43,156 nt of DNA from an uncultured Ruminococcus sp. GTDB lineage: Bacteria > Bacillota > Clostridia > Oscillospirales > Acutalibacteraceae. Within the stretch, counting starts at the first letter, position 1. Every line of letters starts with the position of its first letter. The translations under genes and the position numbers were made by a program. Positions 1,615 through 33,285 of the stretch are shown one piece after another. The notes beneath the pieces were generated by a model. It was given only the letters and a program-made list of their open reading frames with translations. It made no database searches and was not told the DNA's origin. Where the stretch lies: contig CADCKR010000032.1 of the NCBI GenBank assembly GCA_902802105.1, positions 1 through 43,156 of the forward strand, given 5' to 3'.

Positions 1615-3645
1615 TCATGCGCCGCCTGTGTTATTGAACAGACGTGCGACTTCAAATTTCAGGGGAGCGTGTTCCCGCTGAGAAAGCTCAGGGTCATTGG
1701 CAAGTAATTTCTGAGCGGCTTCACGTGCAGCCTCGACAGATACCATGTCGGTAAGCTTTGCGGTGCGCAGTTCGGGAAGTCCGTGCTGACGTGTGCCGAA
1801 AAAATCGCCGGGTCCGCGCAGACGCAGGTCCTCGTCTGCGATCGTGAATCCGTTGTTTGTGCTGCACATTACCTTCAGGCGTTCAAGAGTAGCCTGAGAT
1901 GATGCATCGGACACCATGATGCAGTAAGCTTTGTCGGAACCTCTGCCGACACGTCCCCTCAGCTGATGGAGCTGAGAAAGTCCGAATCTTTCGGCGTTTT
2001 CGATGACCATAATAGTTGCATTCGGAACATTTACGCCGACCTCTATAACAGTAGTTGAAACAAGTATATCAATTTCTCCTGCGGCAAAGGCGCTCATTAT
2101 GCGGTCCTTTTCGGCGGGCTTCATGCGGCCGTGAAGTATCCCTATGCGGCAGTCGGACAAAACGGTCTTGTCAAGACGTTCTGCGTATTCCTCGGCGGAA
2201 ACAAGCTCGGAATCGTTTTGCTCAACAAGCGGGCACACAATATAGCATTGATTGCCGTTTGTTATATGCTTCCGGATAAAGCCGTAAAGCCGACTGCGCT
2301 TTTCGCTGTCGATAAGATAAGTGTCTGTGGGCTTGCGTCCCGGCGGCATTTCATCTATAACGGACAGATCGAGGTCGCCGAATATCATAAGCGCCAATGT
2401 CCTTGGTATCGGTGTGGCTGACATTACTATTATATGCGGATATCTGCCCTTTGAGTTGAGGGCTGCCCGCTGGGCAACGCCAAAGCGGTGCTGCTCGTCG
2501 GTTATGACCAGACCAAGCCTGCTGAATTCTACATTGTCGGAGATGAGTGCATGAGTACCGATAACAATGTCGATGCTTCCGCTTTTCAGCCCGGAGAGTA
2601 TCTGCTTTTTGGCGGCCTGCTTTGTTGAACCTGTAAGCAGGGCAATATTCAGTCCTGTGCCTGCAAAAAGTCCGCTCAGGCTTTGAAAGTGCTGCTCGGC
2701 AAGTATCTCGGTGGGAACCATAAAAGCACATTGCAGTCCGTTTTTAGCGGCCGTGTGACATATCGCGGCGGCGACTGCGGTCTTTCCGCTGCCAACATCT
2801 CCCTGTATAAGTCTGTTCATCGGGCGGCAGGTGCTTTTCATATCTGTTATGCACTGCCCGATCACCCTTTGCTGTGCGTTGGTGGGCTTATAGGGCAGAA
2901 GGGATAAAAATTCTTTGGTGTAGTCAGCCGTAATATTCTGCGGGGTGACATTCAGTCTGTCGCTGCTTCTTAGCCCCACACCAAGCTGAAGGACAAACAG
3001 CTCTTCAAAGACAAGGCGTTTCCGGGCAAGCTCACAGGCGTTATGGTCAGAAGGGAAATGTATGTTCTTTATCGCAAAGCCAAGATCACAAAGTCCGAAC
3101 TCTTCACGGATATGCTGAGGGATGGGGTCGTTCGTTTTTTCAGGCAGCATTGCCACCGCCTGCCGGACGGCTTTTTCGATCTGACGGCTGCTCAGCTCGG
3201 CGGTTTGCTGATAGATGGGACGGATGGCTGCCATAGACGGTTCTTCGACCTGCGGTGAAGCCATTTCATAGTCGTGGGCGGAGGCTTTCAGCATACCGTA
3301 AAAGATGAAATCTCCGCCGGACTTTATGCGGTCGTAGGTGTATTTCTGGTTGAAAAATGTAACCGTCATACGGCTGTCGCCGTCAGTGACCGTTACACGG
3401 AAAATAGTCATGTTTCCGCGGATCCGTGCAGGCGGCTTAGCACTCTCTACGGTGCCGCGTATACAGACGTTTTCGCAGCGCGGAGCTTCGGCGATTTTGC
3501 AGGGTCTGCTCCAGTCCTCGTAGGTGCGCGGATAAAACCTAAGCAGTGCGCCGATGCTGCCGATACCAAGCTTACTGAACTGCTCGGCTTTTTTTGAGCC
3601 TATTTTATCAAGCTGTGTCAGCGGAATTTTAAATAGTGACGCCAA
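1615..3645 (-). CDS. recG: ATP-dependent DNA helicase RecG
   Basis: RecG is a superfamily 2 DNA translocase that regresses stalled replication forks and processes branched recombination intermediates. The 676-residue length is typical. The N-terminal third is the OB-fold wedge region; then come helicase motif I GDVGSGKTAVA, motif II DEQHRFGV, motif III MSATPIPRTLAL, and the C-terminal STTVIEVGVNVPNA and QLRGRVGRG motifs. The start is a TTG at 3645 preceded by AAAGGCGG at about 6 nt. It is the last gene of an apparent pncB-pncA-recG operon, 24 bp after the pncA stop. In many Firmicutes recG follows fakA; here fakA lies ~7 kb away without it. Confidence 0.97.
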   Translation of the reverse strand: MASLFKIPLTQLDKIGSKKAEQFSKLGIGSIGALLRFYPRTYEDWSRPCKIAEAPRCENVCIRGTVESAKPPARIRGNMTIFRVTVTDGDSRMTVTFFNQKYTYDRIKSGGDFIFYGMLKASAHDYEMASPQVEEPSMAAIRPIYQQTAELSSRQIEKAVRQAVAMLPEKTNDPIPQHIREEFGLCDLGFAIKNIHFPSDHNACELARKRLVFEELFVLQLGVGLRSSDRLNVTPQNITADYTKEFLSLLPYKPTNAQQRVIGQCITDMKSTCRPMNRLIQGDVGSGKTAVAAAICHTAAKNGLQCAFMVPTEILAEQHFQSLSGLFAGTGLNIALLTGSTKQAAKKQILSGLKSGSIDIVIGTHALISDNVEFSRLGLVITDEQHRFGVAQRAALNSKGRYPHIIVMSATPIPRTLALMIFGDLDLSVIDEMPPGRKPTDTYLIDSEKRSRLYGFIRKHITNGNQCYIVCPLVEQNDSELVSAEEYAERLDKTVLSDCRIGILHGRMKPAEKDRIMSAFAAGEIDILVSTTVIEVGVNVPNATIMVIENAERFGLSQLHQLRGRVGRGSDKAYCIMVSDASSQATLERLKVMCSTNNGFTIADEDLRLRGPGDFFGTRQHGLPELRTAKLTDMVSVEAAREAAQKLLANDPELSQREHAPLKFEVARLFNNTGGA

Positions 3646-3669: not shown

Positions 3670-4203
3670 TCAGTTATCGTTTATTACATTGATGTGGCAG
3701 CTGCGCATAGTAGCGAGGGCGGCTTCGTGAGCCTGGGGAGTTACACCGGCGCAGCAGGCAGCATCAACGGTTATATCCGTTTCGCAGAAGTGAGCCTTGA
3801 GCAGCAGTGCGTTAGATACAACGCAGATATCGGTGCATAGGCCGATAACCTCTATGCTCATTTCCTCGCCGCCGGCAGCTTTTTCGATCAGCAGCGGCAG
3901 CGTCACGGAGCCGAAGGTGATCTTTTCTACGGGAGTGTATGTCTTTTTGTTCAGTGCGGCTGCCACAGCTTTGTCAAACTGCCAGCCGTCGGTGTCCTTT
4001 ATGCAGTGGGGAACAGGCAGCTTTTTGCCCTCCATCGTGCTGAGATAATCATCATAGTGTGTGTCAAGCGTTGCAAAGATCGTACCGTCAAATTCTTCGA
4101 TTTTCTTTACAACAGCGGGAACGATAGCTTCGGCTTCTTTTGAGCCGAGAGCACCGTCCACGAAATCCTTTTGCATATCAACTACTACAAGAAACTTTTT
4201 CAT
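3670..4203 (-). CDS. pncA: Nicotinamidase / isochorismatase-family cysteine hydrolase
   Basis: This enzyme family hydrolyses nicotinamide to nicotinate and ammonia. The 177-residue protein shows the catalytic triad Asp9 (VVVDMQKDF), Lys94 (VEKITFGS) and Cys127 (GLCTDICVVSNA), and metal-site candidates D47/H49 (LDTHYD) and H66 (VPHC). The family also contains isochorismatases and other amidases, but the position 5 bp downstream of pncB, whose product uses nicotinate, strongly supports nicotinamidase. The ribosome binding site AAAGGAG lies inside the 3' end of pncB, suggesting translational coupling. The protein is shorter than E. coli PncA but similar in size to Gram-positive forms. Confidence 0.9.
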   Translation of the reverse strand: MKKFLVVVDMQKDFVDGALGSKEAEAIVPAVVKKIEEFDGTIFATLDTHYDDYLSTMEGKKLPVPHCIKDTDGWQFDKAVAAALNKKTYTPVEKITFGSVTLPLLIEKAAGGEEMSIEVIGLCTDICVVSNALLLKAHFCETDITVDAACCAGVTPQAHEAALATMRSCHINVINDN

Positions 4204-4208
4204 GAATT

Positions 4209-5414
4209 TTACTCCTTTCTGTCGGCTTCACGCTTTATGCGGAAAGCAACCGAGCTTTTGAGATAATCAAGATATTCGCTGTCACGGCACATGGCTTTTT
4301 CGGGGTTGTCAGAAAGCTTTGCTACAGGTCTGCCGTTGACATATTGAAGCTTGATGACGATATTCAGCGCGTTTTCGCTTGTGTCATTGGAGCAGAAGGT
4401 GCCGATGCCGAAGGAAACCCTTGCTCTGCCGATAAAGTGGTCATAGAGTTTCTGCGCTTTGTCGAAATCAAGGCTGTCGCTGAAAAGCAGGAGCTTTGTT
4501 CGGGGGTCTGCTCCGTATTTCTGATAGTGGCGTATCATTTTTTCGCCCCATTCAAAGGGGTCTCCGCTGTCGTGACGAACGCCTGTGTAGTTGTTTACCA
4601 TAGAGCGGTTGAAGTCGAGCAGGAAAAGATCGGTGGTGATTGTATCGGTCAGTGCGGTGCCGTTGTCGCCCTTGTATTCGTCATACCAGTCGTTCATTGC
4701 ATATTGGTTTGTGTAAGCAAGAGGTATACGGTCGATACCCTGATACATCTGAACGAACTCATGTGCATAGGTGCCTATGGGTGTGAGGTCGTATTTCATT
4801 GCAAGATATACGTTTGAGGTGCCTACACAATTATTTGTCTCGCTTGTCAGGCGTTTTACAACGGTGTTCTCCCATTCTCTTGAGAGCCTTCTTCTGCATC
4901 CGAACTCTGCAAATTTAAAAGTGTATTTGCCGGAGCTAAAATCCTTGATCTTCTGGTCAAGTCTTTCTTCGGCGGAGCGTTTCAAGGTTTCGTAGTCATA
5001 GTTCATTCTGAAATACACCTCGTTTACGATCTCAAGGAGATATATTTCAAACTGCATGGCGGAAAAAAGCGGGCCGCTTACAACTATATCAAGCTCTCCG
5101 CTTTCGCTGCGTGAAACGGTAACGTATTCCCTGATAGGCCTCCACAGGCGTAGAAATTCAACATAGTCACTCTTGATAAAACGAATGGAGCGCAGGTAGT
5201 CAAGCTCCTTCTTTGTGAATCTCAGTGTGCACAGGTGGTCGATTTGCTCGTTTATCTCCCGGACTACCTCTTCTGAAAATGTAACGCCATTGTTGCGGCA
5301 TTTAAAGTAGTATTCGCCGCACAGGTCGGTGTGCTTGTGAAATATCACCTGATCCATATTGAACTTGTAAAGATCGGTGTCAAGCAAAGAGGTGACTATT
5401 GGTTCAAGCTTCAT
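4209..5414 (-). CDS. pncB: Nicotinate phosphoribosyltransferase
   Basis: PncB joins nicotinate to phosphoribosyl pyrophosphate, driven by ATP, to give nicotinate mononucleotide, the committed step of NAD salvage. The 401-residue length matches the E. coli-type enzyme. Recognised signatures are SLLDTDLYKFNMDQ at the N-terminus, the phosphorylatable-His loop GVRHDSGDPFEWG, LLLFSDSLDFDKA, and SFGIGTFCSND near the C-terminus. The ATG at 5414 has an AAAGGAACG site 9-10 nt upstream. It is the first gene of the pncB-pncA-recG unit. Its only upstream region is the AT-rich TAC-N5-GTA array, whose nearest copy begins 27 bp from the start codon, so its promoter must lie in or among those repeats. Confidence 0.96.
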   Translation of the reverse strand: MKLEPIVTSLLDTDLYKFNMDQVIFHKHTDLCGEYYFKCRNNGVTFSEEVVREINEQIDHLCTLRFTKKELDYLRSIRFIKSDYVEFLRLWRPIREYVTVSRSESGELDIVVSGPLFSAMQFEIYLLEIVNEVYFRMNYDYETLKRSAEERLDQKIKDFSSGKYTFKFAEFGCRRRLSREWENTVVKRLTSETNNCVGTSNVYLAMKYDLTPIGTYAHEFVQMYQGIDRIPLAYTNQYAMNDWYDEYKGDNGTALTDTITTDLFLLDFNRSMVNNYTGVRHDSGDPFEWGEKMIRHYQKYGADPRTKLLLFSDSLDFDKAQKLYDHFIGRARVSFGIGTFCSNDTSENALNIVIKLQYVNGRPVAKLSDNPEKAMCRDSEYLDYLKSSVAFRIKREADRKE

Positions 5415-5440: not shown

Positions 5441-5931
5441 TACAATTTGTAAAATAATTCAATAATATACTATTTGTAAAAACGCGGGAATACTATCATT
5501 ATTTTAAGCGGCAGGTTTTCCGGTGTAGCTGCACACTATTCCCTGCACCCGTTTTGTATGCAATCAATTATAATAATATACATATAGTATATATAATAGA
5601 ATAATATACAATTTGTAAATATGCGCTTTGATATACTTATAGTATAAAATAACATAATATTTACAAATAGTAAAAATAATATACTTTTAGTAAAACTTAT
5701 TGAATATATACTATAAGTAAACTACAAAAAGTATAATAAATATATATAATACTATATGTATTTATTTGCGTGTAGAAATAATACATATAGTATATATAAT
5801 AGTACTTATGCAAATAAATATACAATAAGTAATATACTTATAGTATAAAATCTTAATAATATACAATAAGTAAGATGTAAGATCAAAATAAAATACAAAA
5901 AGTATATATATAAAATAATATACGATAAGTA
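5441..5931. repeat. Array of 16 TAC-N5-GTA dyad sites
   Basis: This gene-free, extremely AT-rich stretch contains 16 exact TAC-N5-GTA motifs, starting at 5441, 5468, 5579, 5607, 5634, 5662, 5682, 5709, 5723, 5750, 5782, 5821, 5835, 5862, 5894 and 5921. Every five-base spacer is pure A/T except one G. Flanks often extend the dyad to TATAC-N5-GTAAA or GTATA. Eight of the 15 start-to-start distances are 27 or 28 bp, two are 14 bp. A degenerate seventeenth site with a 4-nt spacer lies at 5803. It fills the space between pncB and the pduL terminator. The arrangement resembles a protein-binding (operator, iteron or centromere-like) array, but I know no regulator with this site. Confidence 0.85.
5479..5555 (-). 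promoter_or_regulatory. Foldable GC-richer island within the array, possible pncB leader RNA
   Basis: The only large gap (111 bp) in the array holds nested complementary segments. On the minus strand, read toward pncB, AAAACG pairs with CGTTTT (outer, 5550-5555 with 5479-5484), GGGAATA pairs with TATTCCC (5537-5543 with 5486-5492), and GTGT-N6-ACAC forms an inner hairpin (5523-5536). GCAGG pairs with CCTGC (5542-5546 with 5511-5515) as an alternative to GGGAATA. The 3' arm runs into TTTTT. Mutually exclusive stems ending in a U-run are the usual layout of a switching leader or attenuator. I do not recognise a known riboswitch class, and transcription through here is inferred from the position of pncB. 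Confidence 0.4.
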
Positions 5932-5973
5932 ATTTATATATGTACCGGCACATTGCAGCCTGCCGATCAGGTA

Positions 5974-6014
5974 TAAAAAAACCGTTTGCCCGCAGGATCA
6001 GACAAACGGTTTTT
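5974..6014 (-). terminator. Terminator of pduL (bidirectional shape)
   Basis: AAACCGTTTG (5979-5988) pairs with CAAACGGTTT (6003-6012). Runs of A on the left and T on the right make it usable on both strands. For pduL on the minus strand the stem is followed by seven T residues. It also insulates the repeat array from pduL. Confidence 0.85.
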
Positions 6015-6062: not shown

Positions 6063-6629
6063 TCAGACTATGATCTCACCTTCGGTGTTGCCTGTGATAG
6101 CAGCAGCATTAGCTTCGTCTGTATCAATGTGCATAGCGGGAGCAAATCTGGGGCTTACTCTTACTACTACATCACCGAAAACGAGTTTTCTTCCTTCGCC
6201 GCCGACAGCAACACTTACGATCTGCTTGTCTTTAAAGCCGTTGTCTTCAGCTGTCTTTGTGTCAAAATGGATATGTCTCTGAGCTGCGATAACGCCCTCA
6301 GCGATCTCGACCTCACCCTTGGGTCCGATAAGCTTGCAGCCGGGTGTGTTTGCAACGTCGCCTGACTCTCTTACAGGAGCGGCTATGCCGAGCTTGCGGG
6401 CGTCTGTCATAGATACCTCTACCTGACATGCGGGTCTTACAGGGCCGAGGATAGAGCAGTTGAGCTCACCCTTGGGGCCGACTACTGTTACCTTCTCGAA
6501 GCAGAGGAACTGTCCGGGCTGAGAAAGATCCTTTTTGTTGGTAAGCTCAGCGCCCTTGCCGAAAAGTATCTCAAGAGCTTCCTGAGTAACGTGTACGTGA
6601 CGAGCTGATGTTTCAACAAGAATTTTCAT
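6063..6629 (-). CDS. pduL: Phosphate propanoyltransferase, PduL type
   Basis: PduL is a zinc-dependent phosphotransacylase that exchanges CoA for phosphate on acetyl- or propionyl-CoA, unrelated to classical Pta. The 188-residue protein starts with VETSARHVHVT and later has AAQRHIHFD, the paired His motifs that bind metal, and a conserved GPVRPACQVEVS segment. The ATG at 6629 follows AAGGGAGAAG. No bacterial microcompartment shell genes, acetate kinase or diol dehydratase are nearby and there is no N-terminal encapsulation extension, so it is probably the housekeeping cytosolic enzyme for acetyl-phosphate formation (inference). It appears to be a single-gene unit. Confidence 0.95.
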   Translation of the reverse strand: MKILVETSARHVHVTQEALEILFGKGAELTNKKDLSQPGQFLCFEKVTVVGPKGELNCSILGPVRPACQVEVSMTDARKLGIAAPVRESGDVANTPGCKLIGPKGEVEIAEGVIAAQRHIHFDTKTAEDNGFKDKQIVSVAVGGEGRKLVFGDVVVRVSPRFAPAMHIDTDEANAAAITGNTEGEIIV

Positions 6630-7543: not shown

Positions 7544-9289
7544 TCAATACTTAGCAGGAATTCCGATACTGCCAAATATCTTCTTGAGATCTGATGATTT
7601 TGTTGTGAGCAGATTGTTGTTTGATGAAAGCTCATTGATCTCGGCTTTGCCGGATATATAATATTCAAACTTCATTTCAGTGCCATCATAAGCAGGCTCT
7701 GTGTAGGTAATGGTCATTGAATCGTCTGTGAGCTTCATGTTGCCGCTGATGCTCATATTGGGCGCCTGATCCTGTGCAGGAACTGTCTGTCCCTGGCCGG
7801 CGCTGAGAGCTTTCATGGGGTTGTTCATATTGTTTGTAATTGTGAAGTCGCCTGTTGCTGTGTCTCTTGTATAGGTCGTGCTGCCTGTGAGGAGCATACC
7901 TGTATAAGTAGCAACGAACTTATCCTGAGCTGCAGTGCTTTCGTTAGTAACGGTGATAGTCTGGAGTACGGATTCTGCTGCACCGCCCTGTGTTGAAGCC
8001 TTGATGGTTATCTTCTTTGAAGAAGCCGGGTCTGCACCAAAGGTAAGTGTGAGCTTTATGCCCTGACCGTTCACGTTTGCAAGTATCTCAGCCTGCATGA
8101 GAGCGTTGTCTTTGTTGACATAGTGCTTGAATACTATCTCGAAGTTCTTAACGGAAGAATTGATCTGTGCAGCGATCTGGGATACATCAATTTGGCTGAG
8201 GACCTTATCAACAGCTGCATTGACCTCATCATCGATAATGTTATTGACGATGCTGTTCTTTATCCAGTCCTTGACGTCGGTAAGTAAGGATGTAACGATA
8301 TCGGTGTTGTTGAAGGTGTGGCTGATAACGTAAGCATCGGTCTTTGTACCGTCGATATCAACATTTTCATTAGCTACAGAAACATTTCCGCACTTGTCAA
8401 AGTCATCCTTGAGCTTGTTGGCAAGCGTTACAATACCAAATGGATCGCTGTCATTTTTCAGGTTGTTATAGATGAAATCATAAACGTCCATCGCGATGTC
8501 GAAGGTCTTCTGGTCGATATTGAAAATATTTTCGCCCTTGGGGCCGAATGCTGAATAAGCAGCTTCTTCTCTGAGGTTGTCAAGGTTGATATAATAGTCG
8601 TAGCTTTCATTGTCAAAGCTAAACTTTGCAACGGCCTTGTCCATATCGGAGAAAAACTCTGTCGTGATATTTTCAGGGCCTGAATAGTACTTCTTCATCT
8701 CATCGGAGATCTTCTGTGAACGCTCGATCCTGTAGTAGAATTTCTTTGTAAGTGCATCAACGGAGTATATTGTGGACTGTGAAGAGTCGTTGTATGAAAT
8801 GGTGGTCTTTACTGTTTTTTGTTCATTGGTTGAAGCAGTAGCAGACTTTACGACAGCGTTGTTGGCAGTCATGCTTTCTGCTGTGGCGCGGTATGAATCA
8901 AAGACATACTTTGTGGGATCCTCCTGTATGCTTTTTACTGTATTACCGCTGATTATGGAACGGATAATGAAGAACGAGGCAACTCCGAGGCCGATCACAG
9001 CAGCGATAGCTATAATTGCGATTATAAGTTTTTTCCTGCTCTTTTTAGCTACCACATCAGACATTGTGTATTCCTGATATCTTGAAGTATTGTTATTAAG
9101 GTCTTTGATATCATCCTGAGAAAGATTCTCGAAGGTCATTGGCTGAGGAGCATCGGATGTTTCCGAAAAGTTCAGCGCATCATTAGTTCCGGAGCTTTCA
9201 GCTGAAGAAAAATCCGGAATGAATGAACCGCATGATTTGCAGTGACGTACAGATGGATCGTTTTCTTTTCCGCAGTTTGGGCAAAACAT
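7544..9289 (-). CDS. Zinc-ribbon, single-pass membrane protein of unknown function
   Basis: The protein begins with a zinc ribbon (FCPNCGKEN...HCKSCGS, two CxxC pairs) in the cytoplasm, then a ~60-residue polar linker, one strong membrane segment near residue 90-112 (LIIAIIAIAAVIGLGVASFFII) and a ~460-residue outside domain. That domain is rich in Asp, Ser, Thr and Asn and matches no family I recognise. The longer frame starts at 9298, but AAGGAG abuts that ATG with no spacing, while the ATG at 9289 has it 9 nt upstream, so the start is placed at 9289 (581 aa). The build resembles TcaA-like or other zinc-ribbon surface proteins of Firmicutes that sense or maintain the envelope; this comparison is architectural only. 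It is a single-gene unit. Confidence 0.85.
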   Translation of the reverse strand: MFCPNCGKENDPSVRHCKSCGSFIPDFSSAESSGTNDALNFSETSDAPQPMTFENLSQDDIKDLNNNTSRYQEYTMSDVVAKKSRKKLIIAIIAIAAVIGLGVASFFIIRSIISGNTVKSIQEDPTKYVFDSYRATAESMTANNAVVKSATASTNEQKTVKTTISYNDSSQSTIYSVDALTKKFYYRIERSQKISDEMKKYYSGPENITTEFFSDMDKAVAKFSFDNESYDYYINLDNLREEAAYSAFGPKGENIFNIDQKTFDIAMDVYDFIYNNLKNDSDPFGIVTLANKLKDDFDKCGNVSVANENVDIDGTKTDAYVISHTFNNTDIVTSLLTDVKDWIKNSIVNNIIDDEVNAAVDKVLSQIDVSQIAAQINSSVKNFEIVFKHYVNKDNALMQAEILANVNGQGIKLTLTFGADPASSKKITIKASTQGGAAESVLQTITVTNESTAAQDKFVATYTGMLLTGSTTYTRDTATGDFTITNNMNNPMKALSAGQGQTVPAQDQAPNMSISGNMKLTDDSMTITYTEPAYDGTEMKFEYYISGKAEINELSSNNNLLTTKSSDLKKIFGSIGIPAKY

Positions 9290-24589: not shown

Positions 24590-25153
24590 TTATTTCGGAA
24601 GATATTTTGCTGCGACAAAGCTCTTGAATTCGTTGACGACCTCCTGCAGGTGTCTGACTGTATCCTCCGGGCTTTGCTTCATGCCTGTTTTTACCCAGTT
24701 CGTTACCGAGCCTGATACTCCATAGGACAGGAACTCGGCAATAAACTGCTTGTCATCCGGATTGACTGTCTGTCCCTCGGCTATCTGATCAATGACGCCG
24801 CACAATACCTCGGTTACGGCGTTGAACAAAAACTGTCTGAATTCATCTCCATGAGTTGTGTTGAATGCGTTGGAATAAAAACGTGAATTTTTCTTTACAA
24901 CTATAAGTATGCCAAGCAGCTTTTGGTTCCAGTTATCAATAGTAAGATCCTCAGTAAACGGAGTGATGACTTCGGTATAGAGTATCCAGTTGAGCAGCTC
25001 ATACTTGTCCTGGAAATGGTAGTAGAATGTCTGGCGGTTAAGCCCGCACTGATCCGTAATGTCAGAGATAGTGATCTTTTCAAAGCTCTTTTTAGCCATC
25101 ACAGCTCTGAAACCGTCTGCGATTATTCTTTTTGTGAGGATTGATTCTGACAT
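24590..25153 (-). CDS. TetR/AcrR-family transcriptional regulator
   Basis: The 187-residue protein has a TetR-type helix-turn-helix in the first ~55 residues (KITISDITDQCGLNRQTFYYHFQDKYELLNWI). The long FYYHF...NWI form and the C-terminal pattern resemble the DhaS-like subgroup, whose members regulate dihydroxyacetone kinase or unknown targets. The ligand is unknown. It converges on the amylase gene and is probably not its regulator. Upstream, TATAAT-A-ATTATA (within about 25180-25195) is a perfect dyad overlapping its likely -10 region and could be an autoregulatory operator. Confidence 0.9.
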   Translation of the reverse strand: MSESILTKRIIADGFRAVMAKKSFEKITISDITDQCGLNRQTFYYHFQDKYELLNWILYTEVITPFTEDLTIDNWNQKLLGILIVVKKNSRFYSNAFNTTHGDEFRQFLFNAVTEVLCGVIDQIAEGQTVNPDDKQFIAEFLSYGVSGSVTNWVKTGMKQSPEDTVRHLQEVVNEFKSFVAAKYLPK

Positions 25154-31186: not shown

Positions 31187-31752
31187 CGCCGGCGGCGCAG
31201 AGCCTGCGCACCCCTGTCCGCTCCGCTCGTTTACACTCGCTTTGTTCTGCTCATTCTTTAGTCATTCCCGTAGAAGCAGGTGCATTCGCGGTGCTTTGCA
31301 AAAACTTCTTTAGCAGACGCTGATTTACTTGCCGCGGCGGTACGGACTGCAGTATGTGTTGAACAAGAAGCGAATCGGCACCGGCGGCTCGCCGGCGCTC
31401 CGGTCGTCGTAGAAGCAGGTGCATTCGCGGTGCTTTGCAAAAAACTTTTTTTAAAGACGCTGATTTACTTGCCGCCCGTAGAAGCAGGTACATTCGCGGT
31501 CTTTTACCAAAACTTCTTTAGCAGACGCTGATTTACTTGCCGCCCGTAGAAGCAGTTACATTCGCGGTCTTTTACCAAAACTCCTTTAGCAGACGCCGAT
31601 TTACTTGCCGCCCGTAGAAGCAGGTGCATTCGCGGTGCTTTGCAAAAACTTTTTTTAAAGACGCTGATTTACTATTCTGTGCGGTACGGACTGCAGTATG
31701 TGTTGAACAAGAAGCGAATCGGCACCGGCGGCTCGCCGGCGCTCCGGTCGTT
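31187..31752. repeat. Composite repeat tract with five ~68-bp tandem units
   Basis: A GC-rich segment (from about 31187, containing GCGCAGAGCCTGCGC and CTCGTTTACACTCGC) leads into units that each begin GTAGAAGCAG at 31270, 31409, 31478, 31546 and 31614. Unit spacing is 68-69 bp, except the first (139 bp), which is enlarged by a ~70-bp module containing GTGTTGAACAAGAAGCG; that module recurs after the last unit at about 31681-31751. A shorter version of the whole composite is at 39243-39475. Frames through it give only repetitive, low-complexity peptides, so I do not call a gene. Confidence 0.85.
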
Positions 31753-32115: not shown

Positions 32116-33285
32116 TTATAATATCTCTCTGTTAGGGTCGGTGTCGGCATCGTAATCAACGCCGTCTATGCCGAAGCCGAAGAGCTTGTAAAAGTCGCTG
32201 AAATAACCGTCAAGGTCTGCATGGGTAGAAAGATTTTCGGTCGAGATCGTGCTCCAGAGCTGATCTACCTCAGACTGTATCTCAGGCTGCATTTCAAGGT
32301 CGTCAAGGCGGATGCGGTTCTGATCGTCTGTTACAACAGCGCCGGTGTCGTTGTATAGCTTTTCATTAAGAAGGCGGTACATCTGCTCTATGCAGCCTTC
32401 GTGTACATTGTGCTCCTTCATTACCTTATAAAGAATTGAAATGTAAAGCGGTACTATCGGGATGGCTGCGCTTGATTGTGTGACAAGAGCCTTGTTTACA
32501 GAAATATATGCCTTTATGCCATCAGCGGTTATTTCCTTGGAGGTTGCAAAAAGGTGATCCTTTGCCTTGCCGATTGAGCCGTCAGCATACATCGGGTGGG
32601 TGATCTCAGGGCCGATGTAGGAGTAAGCGACCGTGACGGCGTTTTCGTCAATAGCATCTGCGGCTTTGAGTGCGTCTATCCATGCTTTCCAGTCCTCGCC
32701 GCCCATTACCTTGATCGTGGCGGTTATTTCCTCGTCAGAAGCAGGTGTGACTGTGATATCGCTTACAACGCGGTTTTTCAGGTCGATAGTCTTGTTTGTA
32801 TATGGTTCGCCGACTGTTTTGAGCACTGATGTATATGTGGAGCCGTCAGGCATTGTGCGGCGGGGTGCGGCAAGACTGTATATCACAAGATCCACCTTGC
32901 CGAGATCCTGCTTGATGAGGGAGATCGTCTGCTGCTTTATATCATCGGAGTAAGCATCGCCGTTGACGGTTTTGGCATAAATACCGTCCTTGCGGGCGAA
33001 TTCCTCAAAGGCGGATGTGTTGTACCATCCGGAGGAGGCTGTTCTTGCGCCTGATGCGGGTTTGTCGAAAATAACCCCCACAGTTGCGGCACCGAAGGAA
33101 TATGCTGCCGTGATGCGTGATGCAAGACCGTAGCCCATAGATGCGCCGATCACGAGAACCTTTTTGGGACCCTGTGCGTGTTTGTGTGCTTTTACATATT
33201 CGATCTGCTCTTTTACGGATGCCTTACAGCCGTCGGGATGGGCGGTCGTGCAAATGAATCCTCTTACTTTTGGCGTGATTATCAT
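32116..33285 (-). CDS. fabV: Enoyl-[ACP]/trans-2-enoyl-CoA reductase, FabV type
   Basis: FabV reduces the trans-2 double bond of enoyl-ACP or enoyl-CoA with NADH, in fatty-acid synthesis or as a fermentative crotonyl-CoA reductase. The 389-residue protein has the family N-terminus MIITPKVRGFICTTAHPDGC, the cofactor site VLVIGASMGYGLASRI, and the Tyr-x8-Lys active site (MYADGSIGKAK), which separates FabV from FabI (Tyr-x6-Lys). ATG 33285 with AAAGGAG 8 nt upstream is chosen over the frame's start 78 bases earlier. It is a single-gene unit with repeat elements on both sides. Confidence 0.96.
   Translation of the reverse strand: MIITPKVRGFICTTAHPDGCKASVKEQIEYVKAHKHAQGPKKVLVIGASMGYGLASRITAAYSFGAATVGVIFDKPASGARTASSGWYNTSAFEEFARKDGIYAKTVNGDAYSDDIKQQTISLIKQDLGKVDLVIYSLAAPRRTMPDGSTYTSVLKTVGEPYTNKTIDLKNRVVSDITVTPASDEEITATIKVMGGEDWKAWIDALKAADAIDENAVTVAYSYIGPEITHPMYADGSIGKAKDHLFATSKEITADGIKAYISVNKALVTQSSAAIPIVPLYISILYKVMKEHNVHEGCIEQMYRLLNEKLYNDTGAVVTDDQNRIRLDDLEMQPEIQSEVDQLWSTISTENLSTHADLDGYFSDFYKLFGFGIDGVDYDADTDPNREIL

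What the first reader, a model, noticed from the sequence alone, without database searches (positions are those of the whole stretch)
5441..5931. Sixteen-copy TAC-N5-GTA array with 27-bp phasing upstream of pncB
Sixteen exact TAC-N5-GTA sites occur in 491 bp; by base composition far less than one would be expected. Spacers are pure A/T with one exception. Start-to-start steps are 27, 111, 28, 27, 28, 20, 27, 14, 27, 32, 39, 14, 27, 32 and 27: eight of fifteen are 27-28 and two are half that. Arms extend to TATAC and GTAWA. This is too regular for random AT-rich DNA and too degenerate in the linkers to be a simple tandem repeat, so selection on the dyads is likely. Candidates are a large operator array for an unknown dimeric regulator of NAD salvage, a nucleoid or chromosome-anchoring site, or an iteron-like region. 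I know no described motif of this form.
Basis: partly seen in the sequence, partly recalled or inferred. Interest (0 to 1): 0.88.

Follow-up and report, generated by a model that had tools for sequence, protein, structure and literature searches.

The report
Origin-side arrays of tiny DNA palindromes
In rumen Ruminococcus bacteria, gaps between genes around the origin of DNA replication carry dense rows of a tiny palindrome at strict spacings, which look like docking strips for an unknown protein that may mark or organise that part of the chromosome.

Summary
Sixteen exact TAC-N5-GTA dyads lie in 5441-5931 (2000 shuffles: mean 0.40, largest 4), all with spacer 5. They belong to a family of arrays: 34 of 64 genus genomes have three or more three-site matches (reversed control 6 of 64); other genera of the family show isolated matches at most. 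Over 62 arrays (446 sites) the steps are quantised: 14, 16-17, 27-28, 41.

Two results move the reading away from an NAD operator. Arrays occur in tandem, divergent and convergent gaps. And they concentrate on the dnaA side of the chromosome: 11 of 20 distinct array loci have an orthologue on dnaA contigs of other species against 2 of 20 control stretches (p 0.006; one stretch per locus 9 of 20, p 0.03); the four non-coding pair loci examined in this genome all look origin-side. Canonical parS exists as well.

Best reading: a genus-specific platform for a cooperative dimeric protein that marks or organises the origin domain, working like RacA-ram, RefZ-RBM or Noc-NBS. The binder is unknown; a genus-restricted 104-aa protein (c3) with sites just before its start in 27 of 52 loci is a lead. 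Local regulation of pncB and c3 is not excluded.

The parts
5441..5931 (.). array of 16 TAC-N5-GTA dyads (starts 5441, 5468, 5579, 5607, 5634, 5662, 5682, 5709, 5723, 5750, 5782, 5821, 5835, 5862, 5894, 5921); 12 of 15 steps are among the genus-wide favoured or near-favoured ones
5491..5501 (.). one-mismatch dyad TACTATCATTA, the only one in the region
5977..6014 (-). 12-nt perfect inverted repeat followed on the minus strand by a T run: probable terminator of the pduL-type gene, so pncB would need its own promoter in the array gap. The tool's terminator scan did not list it
   Evidence: (repeat I14), sequence; one search found 0 terminators
4209..5414 (-). pncB, nicotinate phosphoribosyltransferase; its start faces the array
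   Evidence: Pfam NAPRTase
3670..4203 (-). pncA-like isochorismatase-family gene downstream of pncB
1615..3645 (-). recG, next downstream
6063..6629 (-). pduL-type phosphate propanoyltransferase; its 3' end faces the array
24590..25153 (-). TetR-family regulator (TetR_N, TetR_C_8), considered as binder and not supported

Best explanation
The array is a platform for cooperative binding of a dimeric, sequence-specific protein: each dyad takes one dimer and the quantised steps let neighbours touch. It is one of a few such platforms in gaps between genes on the origin side of the chromosome in this genus. Its main job is to mark or organise the origin domain (anchoring, segregation, or coupling to division), as RacA-ram, RefZ-RBM or Noc-NBS do; promoters inside a platform, such as those of pncB or c3, may be controlled by the same protein. 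Shown here: dyads, spacing rule, genus restriction, indifference to gene orientation, origin-side enrichment. Inferred: that a protein binds, as a dimer and cooperatively, and that the function is chromosomal. Unknown: the protein.
For: Dyads far above shuffles. Genus restriction: 34 of 64 genus genomes with three or more three-site matches, control 6 of 64; 16 of 291 non-genus family genomes in the sample with any match, mostly a single one. Quantised steps in 62 arrays: 14 seen 56 (expected 20.4), 16 54 (17.9), 17 43 (17.0), 27 62 (8.4); 11-13, 15 and 19-26 depleted. Orientation: gaps with 3 or more sites 40 tandem, 7 divergent, 9 convergent (2 of the 9 on a spurious ORF) against 116, 29, 29 for gaps without. 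Origin side: own c3 array 48 kb from dnaA on one contig; clusters or pairs on 6 of 7 dnaA contigs; 11 of 20 loci against 2 of 20 controls, p 0.006, one stretch per locus 9 of 20, p 0.03; closed genome G070: 32 proteins near dnaA, 2 elsewhere in the sample, controls 3 and 1. The pncB array keeps its place in G005 and G030 while its letters are no more alike than those of unrelated arrays.
Against: No binder identified. No closed genome of the genus was held; references were chosen around dnaA, which can only show proximity, and controls come from one genome. About 8 or 9 of 20 loci were not placed by the main test, among them a 20-site array (G010 L073); one 3-site cluster (L130) has weak homologues near the G070 terminus. 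The partly read dnaA contig of G059 has only one pair. 15 of 64 genus genomes show no three-site match, including nearly complete ones (G042, G047, G050). Conserved nearest sites upstream of c3 and pncB suit an operator. MAG binning is imperfect.
Confidence: 0.47

Rival explanations
1. Operator arrays: a genus-specific repressor or silencer binds cooperatively over promoters of a small regulon (c3, alkD, recQ, pncB-pncA-recG, tatD, metG and others), and the origin side is simply where these genes lie.
For: Nearest site starts 24-32 bp before the c3 start in 27 of 52 loci (shuffle mean 0.16) with a second at 50-58 in 16 of 52; before pncB at -37, -35, -36 in three species; most arrays are in tandem gaps.
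Against: Up to 20 sites per gap; convergent gaps carry arrays (7 after leaving out 2 spurious); sites resume 0-5 bases after the c3 stop codon in 12 of the 20 loci that have a site within 150 bases after it (54 examined); share of tandem, divergent and convergent gaps is close to that of gaps without sites.
Confidence: 0.3
2. Titration or timing locus: the arrays are origin-side sinks for a protein that limits replication initiation, so that site number doubles soon after initiation, as proposed for DnaA-box clusters and datA.
For: Origin-side enrichment; many sites in few places.
Against: Motif is not a DnaA box (TTATNCACA, recalled); nothing ties the unknown binder to initiation; several closely related genomes lack arrays.
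Confidence: 0.13
3. Mutational or selfish product: the dyads are spread by a recombination or repair process and have no function for the cell.
For: Arrays differ in length and gap between close species, and 15 of 54 stretches have an array within 800 bp of a contig end, which suggests hard-to-assemble or variable DNA.
Against: Copies share no sequence beyond arms and steps; a copying process would leave alike spacers and linkers; exact arms with free spacers suit recognition by a protein.
Confidence: 0.06
4. RNA hairpins: the dyads act as small stem-loops in transcripts.
For: Sites lie just before ribosome-binding sites in many c3 loci.
Against: Bases next to the arms pair less often than expected (52 of 130 against 67.6 at -1/+11; 52 against 66.2 at -2/+12); convergent gaps carry them; no Rfam family at its threshold in the window.
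Confidence: 0.02

Closest known systems
RefZ and its RBM sites (Bacillus; passages of PMC6657595)
   Same: near-palindromic sites outside oriC, placed relative to the origin and conserved in place across a genus
   Different: five single sites there, dense arrays with a spacing rule here; binder here unknown; RBM sequence not compared
RacA and ram sites (Bacillus; passages of PMC6593407)
   Same: many sites, dense near the origin, bound by an oligomerising protein (shown there, inferred here)
   Different: ram sites also lie all over the chromosome; motif and protein not shown to be related
Noc and NBS (passages of PMC5540599)
   Same: sites enriched on the origin side, also in a coccus (S. 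aureus)
   Different: 41 dispersed loci over about half the S. aureus chromosome there, a few dense arrays here
DnaA-box clusters and datA (passages of PMC5295017)
   Same: multi-site loci outside oriC whose dosage affects initiation
   Different: bound by DnaA; motif here is another
DitR operator, TetR family (passages of PMC9342713)
   Same: inverted repeat CATACnnnnnGTATG, the same TAC-N5-GTA core, two boxes in a row
   Different: single promoter operator in Stenotrophomonas, no array, no chromosomal role

Membership tests
   0 matches in the window with up to 2 mismatches; perfect parS sites lie near dnaA in G000, G003, G006, G030, G044, none in the parts fetched of G010 and G037 or G059
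RefZ-RBM | sites outside oriC placed relative to the origin | tested here: inconclusive
   origin-side enrichment, but no closed genus genome
RefZ-RBM | RefZ (TetR-family) orthologue and RBM sequence | not tested
   own genome has two TetR_N matches, one over the cut-off; neither compared with RefZ; RBM not searched
RacA-ram | RacA orthologue and ram sequence | not tested
   no search made
Noc-NBS | Noc orthologue and NBS sequence | not tested
   no search made
TetR-family operator (DitR type) | TAC-N5-GTA core bound by a TetR dimer | not testable with these tools
   core matches; binding needs an experiment; the window's TetR gene and its orthologues have an upstream site in only 2 of 30 loci read
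Simple tandem repeat or iteron array | repeated units alike over their whole length | tested here: not met
   Tandem Repeats Finder reports only a two-copy 27-mer at 5885-5940; copies share arms, not linkers
Known structured RNA | match to an Rfam family | tested here: not met
   no match at gathering thresholds in the window

The most novel reading that the evidence does not exclude
A genus-specific chromosome-domain system working beside ordinary ParABS: an undescribed dimeric protein (possibly the genus-restricted 104-aa c3 protein or a partner of it) assembles along quantised TAC-N5-GTA arrays in several gaps around the origin and marks, anchors or condenses the origin domain, while array sequence turns over fast and only the 3-bp arms, the 5-bp spacer and the step lengths are kept.
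Probability: 0.33. Interest if true: 0.9.

Novelty: new variant of a known kind. Interest (0 to 1): 0.75.

Why it matters
Marking of the origin domain by site-specific proteins is known in a few models and rests there on isolated sites. A genus that uses dense arrays with a spacing code, whose letters turn over while the code stays, would show how such systems arise and move. The array is also a ready DNA bait for finding an unknown chromosome-organising protein in fibre-degrading rumen bacteria.

Tried and rejected
Simple tandem repeat, Rfam families and RNA hairpins are not supported. Genome-wide regulon: single sites outside the arrays are at background in the own genome. Replacement of parS: parS is present. 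The window's TetR protein as binder: upstream sites in only 2 of 30 loci read; orthologues also in array-less species.

Sister comparison: window against G026 contig C185 shows 0 of 96 arm, 4 of 80 spacer and 9 of 446 linker changes, but that contig is about 99% identical while the two genomes' c3 proteins are 54% identical, so it is probably mis-binned or transferred, and the arm difference alone is not significant. G017 against G024: 0 of 30 arm, 4 of 25 spacer, 32 of 120 linker. The pooled count is driven by the motif itself and is not used. Tree of c3: 104 columns, poorly resolved; the array label (two or more three-site matches) changes 12 times, shuffled mean 16.0, 15 of 500 as low.

Full report
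The feature. Window 5441-5931 lies between the 3' end of a pduL-type gene (6063-6629, minus) and the start of pncB (4209-5414, minus); pncA and recG follow. In 2000 dinucleotide shuffles of the region the mean is 0.40 and the largest 4; no other spacer length is enriched; 16 of 19 TAC and 16 of 22 GTA of the region are in dyads. In the own genome (G000: 2.0 Mb, 50 contigs, 89.5% complete; the window is the whole of contig C32) TAC-W5-GTA occurs 36 times, 15 of them here and 3 in one other small array, against 34 for the reversed control.

Relatives. The three-site pattern occurs in 49 of 64 same-genus genomes. Genomes with three or more matches are 34 of 64 against 6 of 64 for the reversed control; in all 368 against 39 matches (tally). 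The control is not clean everywhere: G033 has 6 control against 5 real matches. In a family sample of 297 genomes (90% complete or more) a stricter form hits 19. Three of these are in the genus; the other 16 have one match each except G149 with three; some are G+C-rich and repeat-like, about half are A/T-rich single clusters (two each in genera g24, g36, g45 and g65 among them). A fixed 14-then-16-to-18 pattern over the named collection gave 16 stretches: 13 from Ruminococcus, Ruminococcaceae, Clostridiales or Clostridia MAGs (12 genomes), 3 from unrelated bacteria. Many bear RUG names (rumen genomes, recalled) and one is titled goat rumen.

Anatomy. Over 62 arrays of at least four sites (446 sites, 384 steps; the near-identical G026 copy left out) the steps are: 14 seen 56 times (20.4 expected for random placing), 16 54 (17.9), 17 43 (17.0), 27 62 (8.4), 28 16 (8.3), 31 11 (6.8), 41 11 (3.5), with 11-13, 15 and 19-26 depleted; leaving the window out as well changes little. 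In G010 a run alternates 17 and 14, a sum of 31, about three helical turns. Read on both strands the consensus is about ATAC-WRWYW-GTAT in A/T-rich flanks. Bases next to the arms pair less often than expected, so these are DNA dyads rather than RNA stems. Regular steps between separate dyads are what neighbouring dimers in contact would need; that is inference.

Where arrays sit. In the array-selected stretches there are 4.3 sites per kb in gaps and 0.24 in coding DNA; control stretches of the own genome have 0.13 per kb. Gaps with three or more sites are 40 tandem, 7 divergent and 9 convergent, against 116, 29 and 29 for gaps with none; 2 of the 9 (L117, L120) rest on a spurious antisense ORF over c3. 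The commonest place is the run lepA, c7, GIY-YIG, recQ, alkD, c3, ABC transporter (29 of 57 stretches), with arrays in one or several of its gaps. The pncB gap carries 12 sites in G005 and 20 in G030, the nearest starting at -36 and -35 against -37 here, although G030's array is no more like the window's (61% identical) than unrelated arrays are (60-66%). Place, motif and steps are kept while letters turn over.

Origin side. A DnaA match was found in 64 of 64 genus genomes, over the family cut-off in 62; dnaA is taken as the mark of oriC. In G000 dnaA is at C14:56418, on the same contig as the c3 array (8609-9143) and a pair at 45648. Of seven dnaA contigs read in whole or part, six carry a cluster or pair within about 50 kb of dnaA (G000, G003, G006, G010, G030, G044) and G037 does not; 280 kb of control DNA holds one pair as close. 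An eighth, G059, read in part (46 of 83 kb), shows one pair. Genes that flank arrays in other species map to these contigs: tatD, SDR, M16 and transporter genes (69-87% identical) 36-62 kb from dnaA in G044 (ytaF, c23 and c24 only as weaker homologues), metG 47 kb in G003 and 65 kb in G128, lepA 96 kb in the closed genome G070.

The origin test. The 57 array stretches group by shared genes into 19 loci, or 20 once the mis-binned L110 and a spurious link to L130 are removed. Of these, 11 have an orthologue (65% identity or more) on a dnaA contig of another genus member, against 2 of 20 control stretches (first 14 kb of 20 own contigs, C14 not among them): p 0.0022 for 19 loci, 0.0057 for 20; taking one stretch per locus 9 of 20, p 0.031. 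By protein it is 75 of 478 against 3 of 219 (not independent, one locus supplies most). In G070, 32 array-locus proteins fall within 200 kb of dnaA and 2 in sampled terminus and mid regions (360 against 220 kb sampled); controls 3 and 1.

The own genome taken alone. The pair search of the whole genome gives C14 8.6-9.1 kb, C14 17980 (inside an ORF), C14 45648, C30 6795, C32, and a repeat on C33 that I did not examine. Leaving out the ORF and C33, four loci remain. C14 bears dnaA. Five C30 genes map in order to G044 C2 49.9-54.3 kb; G044 has its own pair at 55.5 kb, 33 kb from dnaA, just after the same aminotransferase gene, while in C30 the pair is about 0.7 kb after it. For C32, the window, ORFs between 12.6 and 24.5 kb hit G044 54-62 kb from dnaA (six ORFs, two of them at one place); single genes lie 28 kb from dnaA in G003, 43 in G006, 18 in G010, 91-94 in G070, 27, 28 and 125 in G128, and the TetR gene 39 kb in G059. 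Gene order is not fixed, but all four loci look origin-side.

Limits. No closed genome of the genus was held; references were picked around dnaA; controls come from one genome; several MAGs are incomplete. Of 54 stretches whose contig lengths I listed, 15 have an array within 800 bp of a contig end, so true lengths may be larger. Nine of 20 loci had no hit in the main test; some of these look origin-side by other references (L113 by G000 and G070, L098 by G070 at 130-135 kb), others (L073, L076, L097, L107, L108) could not be placed, and L130 has weak homologues near the G070 terminus.

What it does. For an operator: the nearest site starts 24-32 bp before the c3 start in 27 of 52 loci (0.16 expected by shuffling), with a second at 50-58 in 16 of 52, and at -35 to -37 before pncB. 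For a chromosomal role: unrelated neighbours, all orientations, sites resuming 0-5 bases after the c3 stop codon in 12 of the 20 loci with a site within 150 bases (54 examined), and the shared origin side. I favour the second as the main function (0.47), with local regulation as a by-product; operators alone get 0.30 and a titration or timing locus 0.13. Perfect parS sites beside dnaA in five species show that ordinary parS is not replaced.

The binder. c3 (104 aa) shares the genus restriction of the arrays: 57 of 64 genus genomes; 3 of 150 in a family sample, two of these in the genus and one in sister genus g66. Neither sequence nor its weak model says what it does. Some species keep c3 without any three-site match (G036, G042, G047, G050). 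The window's TetR protein was considered because DitR, a TetR-type repressor, has the operator CATACnnnnnGTATG (passages) and because RefZ is of that family (passages); but its orthologues have an upstream site in only 2 of 30 loci read.

Comparison. It would work most like RefZ-RBM, RacA-ram or Noc-NBS, and could resemble DnaA-box clusters or datA; of each paper I saw passages only. Membership in none is shown. What differs is the architecture: few places, up to 20 dyads each, a spacing code, fast turnover of letters. Searches listed no description of such arrays; the library holds open-licence papers only and I read their listings, not all papers.

Noticed in passing
G134 and G218 (family genus g72): The reversed control pattern (ATG-N5-CAT three times in a row) matches 21 and 16 times in two genomes of this sister genus: another dyad array, or a coding repeat.
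   Followed up: no
L190 1-480 (G003), L199 13600-14200 (G030), L202 750-1300 (G010): In the same gap beside a GNAT-type gene 18-32 kb from dnaA, TAC-N5-GTA sites are interleaved with a second inverted repeat, TTTTCAACAT / ATGTTGAAAA, in three species.
   Followed up: partly
L187 6764-18561 (G003 contig C14): Seven perfect parS sites at roughly 1-3 kb spacing, about 10-22 kb from dnaA.
   Followed up: no
L110 (G026 contig C185): About 99% identical to the window although the two genomes' c3 proteins are 54% identical: probably a mis-binned contig, or a recent transfer.
   Followed up: partly
G000, whole genome: Only two TetR_N matches in 2.0 Mb, one of them below the family's cut-off; the better one lies in this window.
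   Followed up: partly
window 31408-31673: A 68-bp tandem repeat of 3.9 copies between hrcA and the gene at 32116.
   Followed up: no
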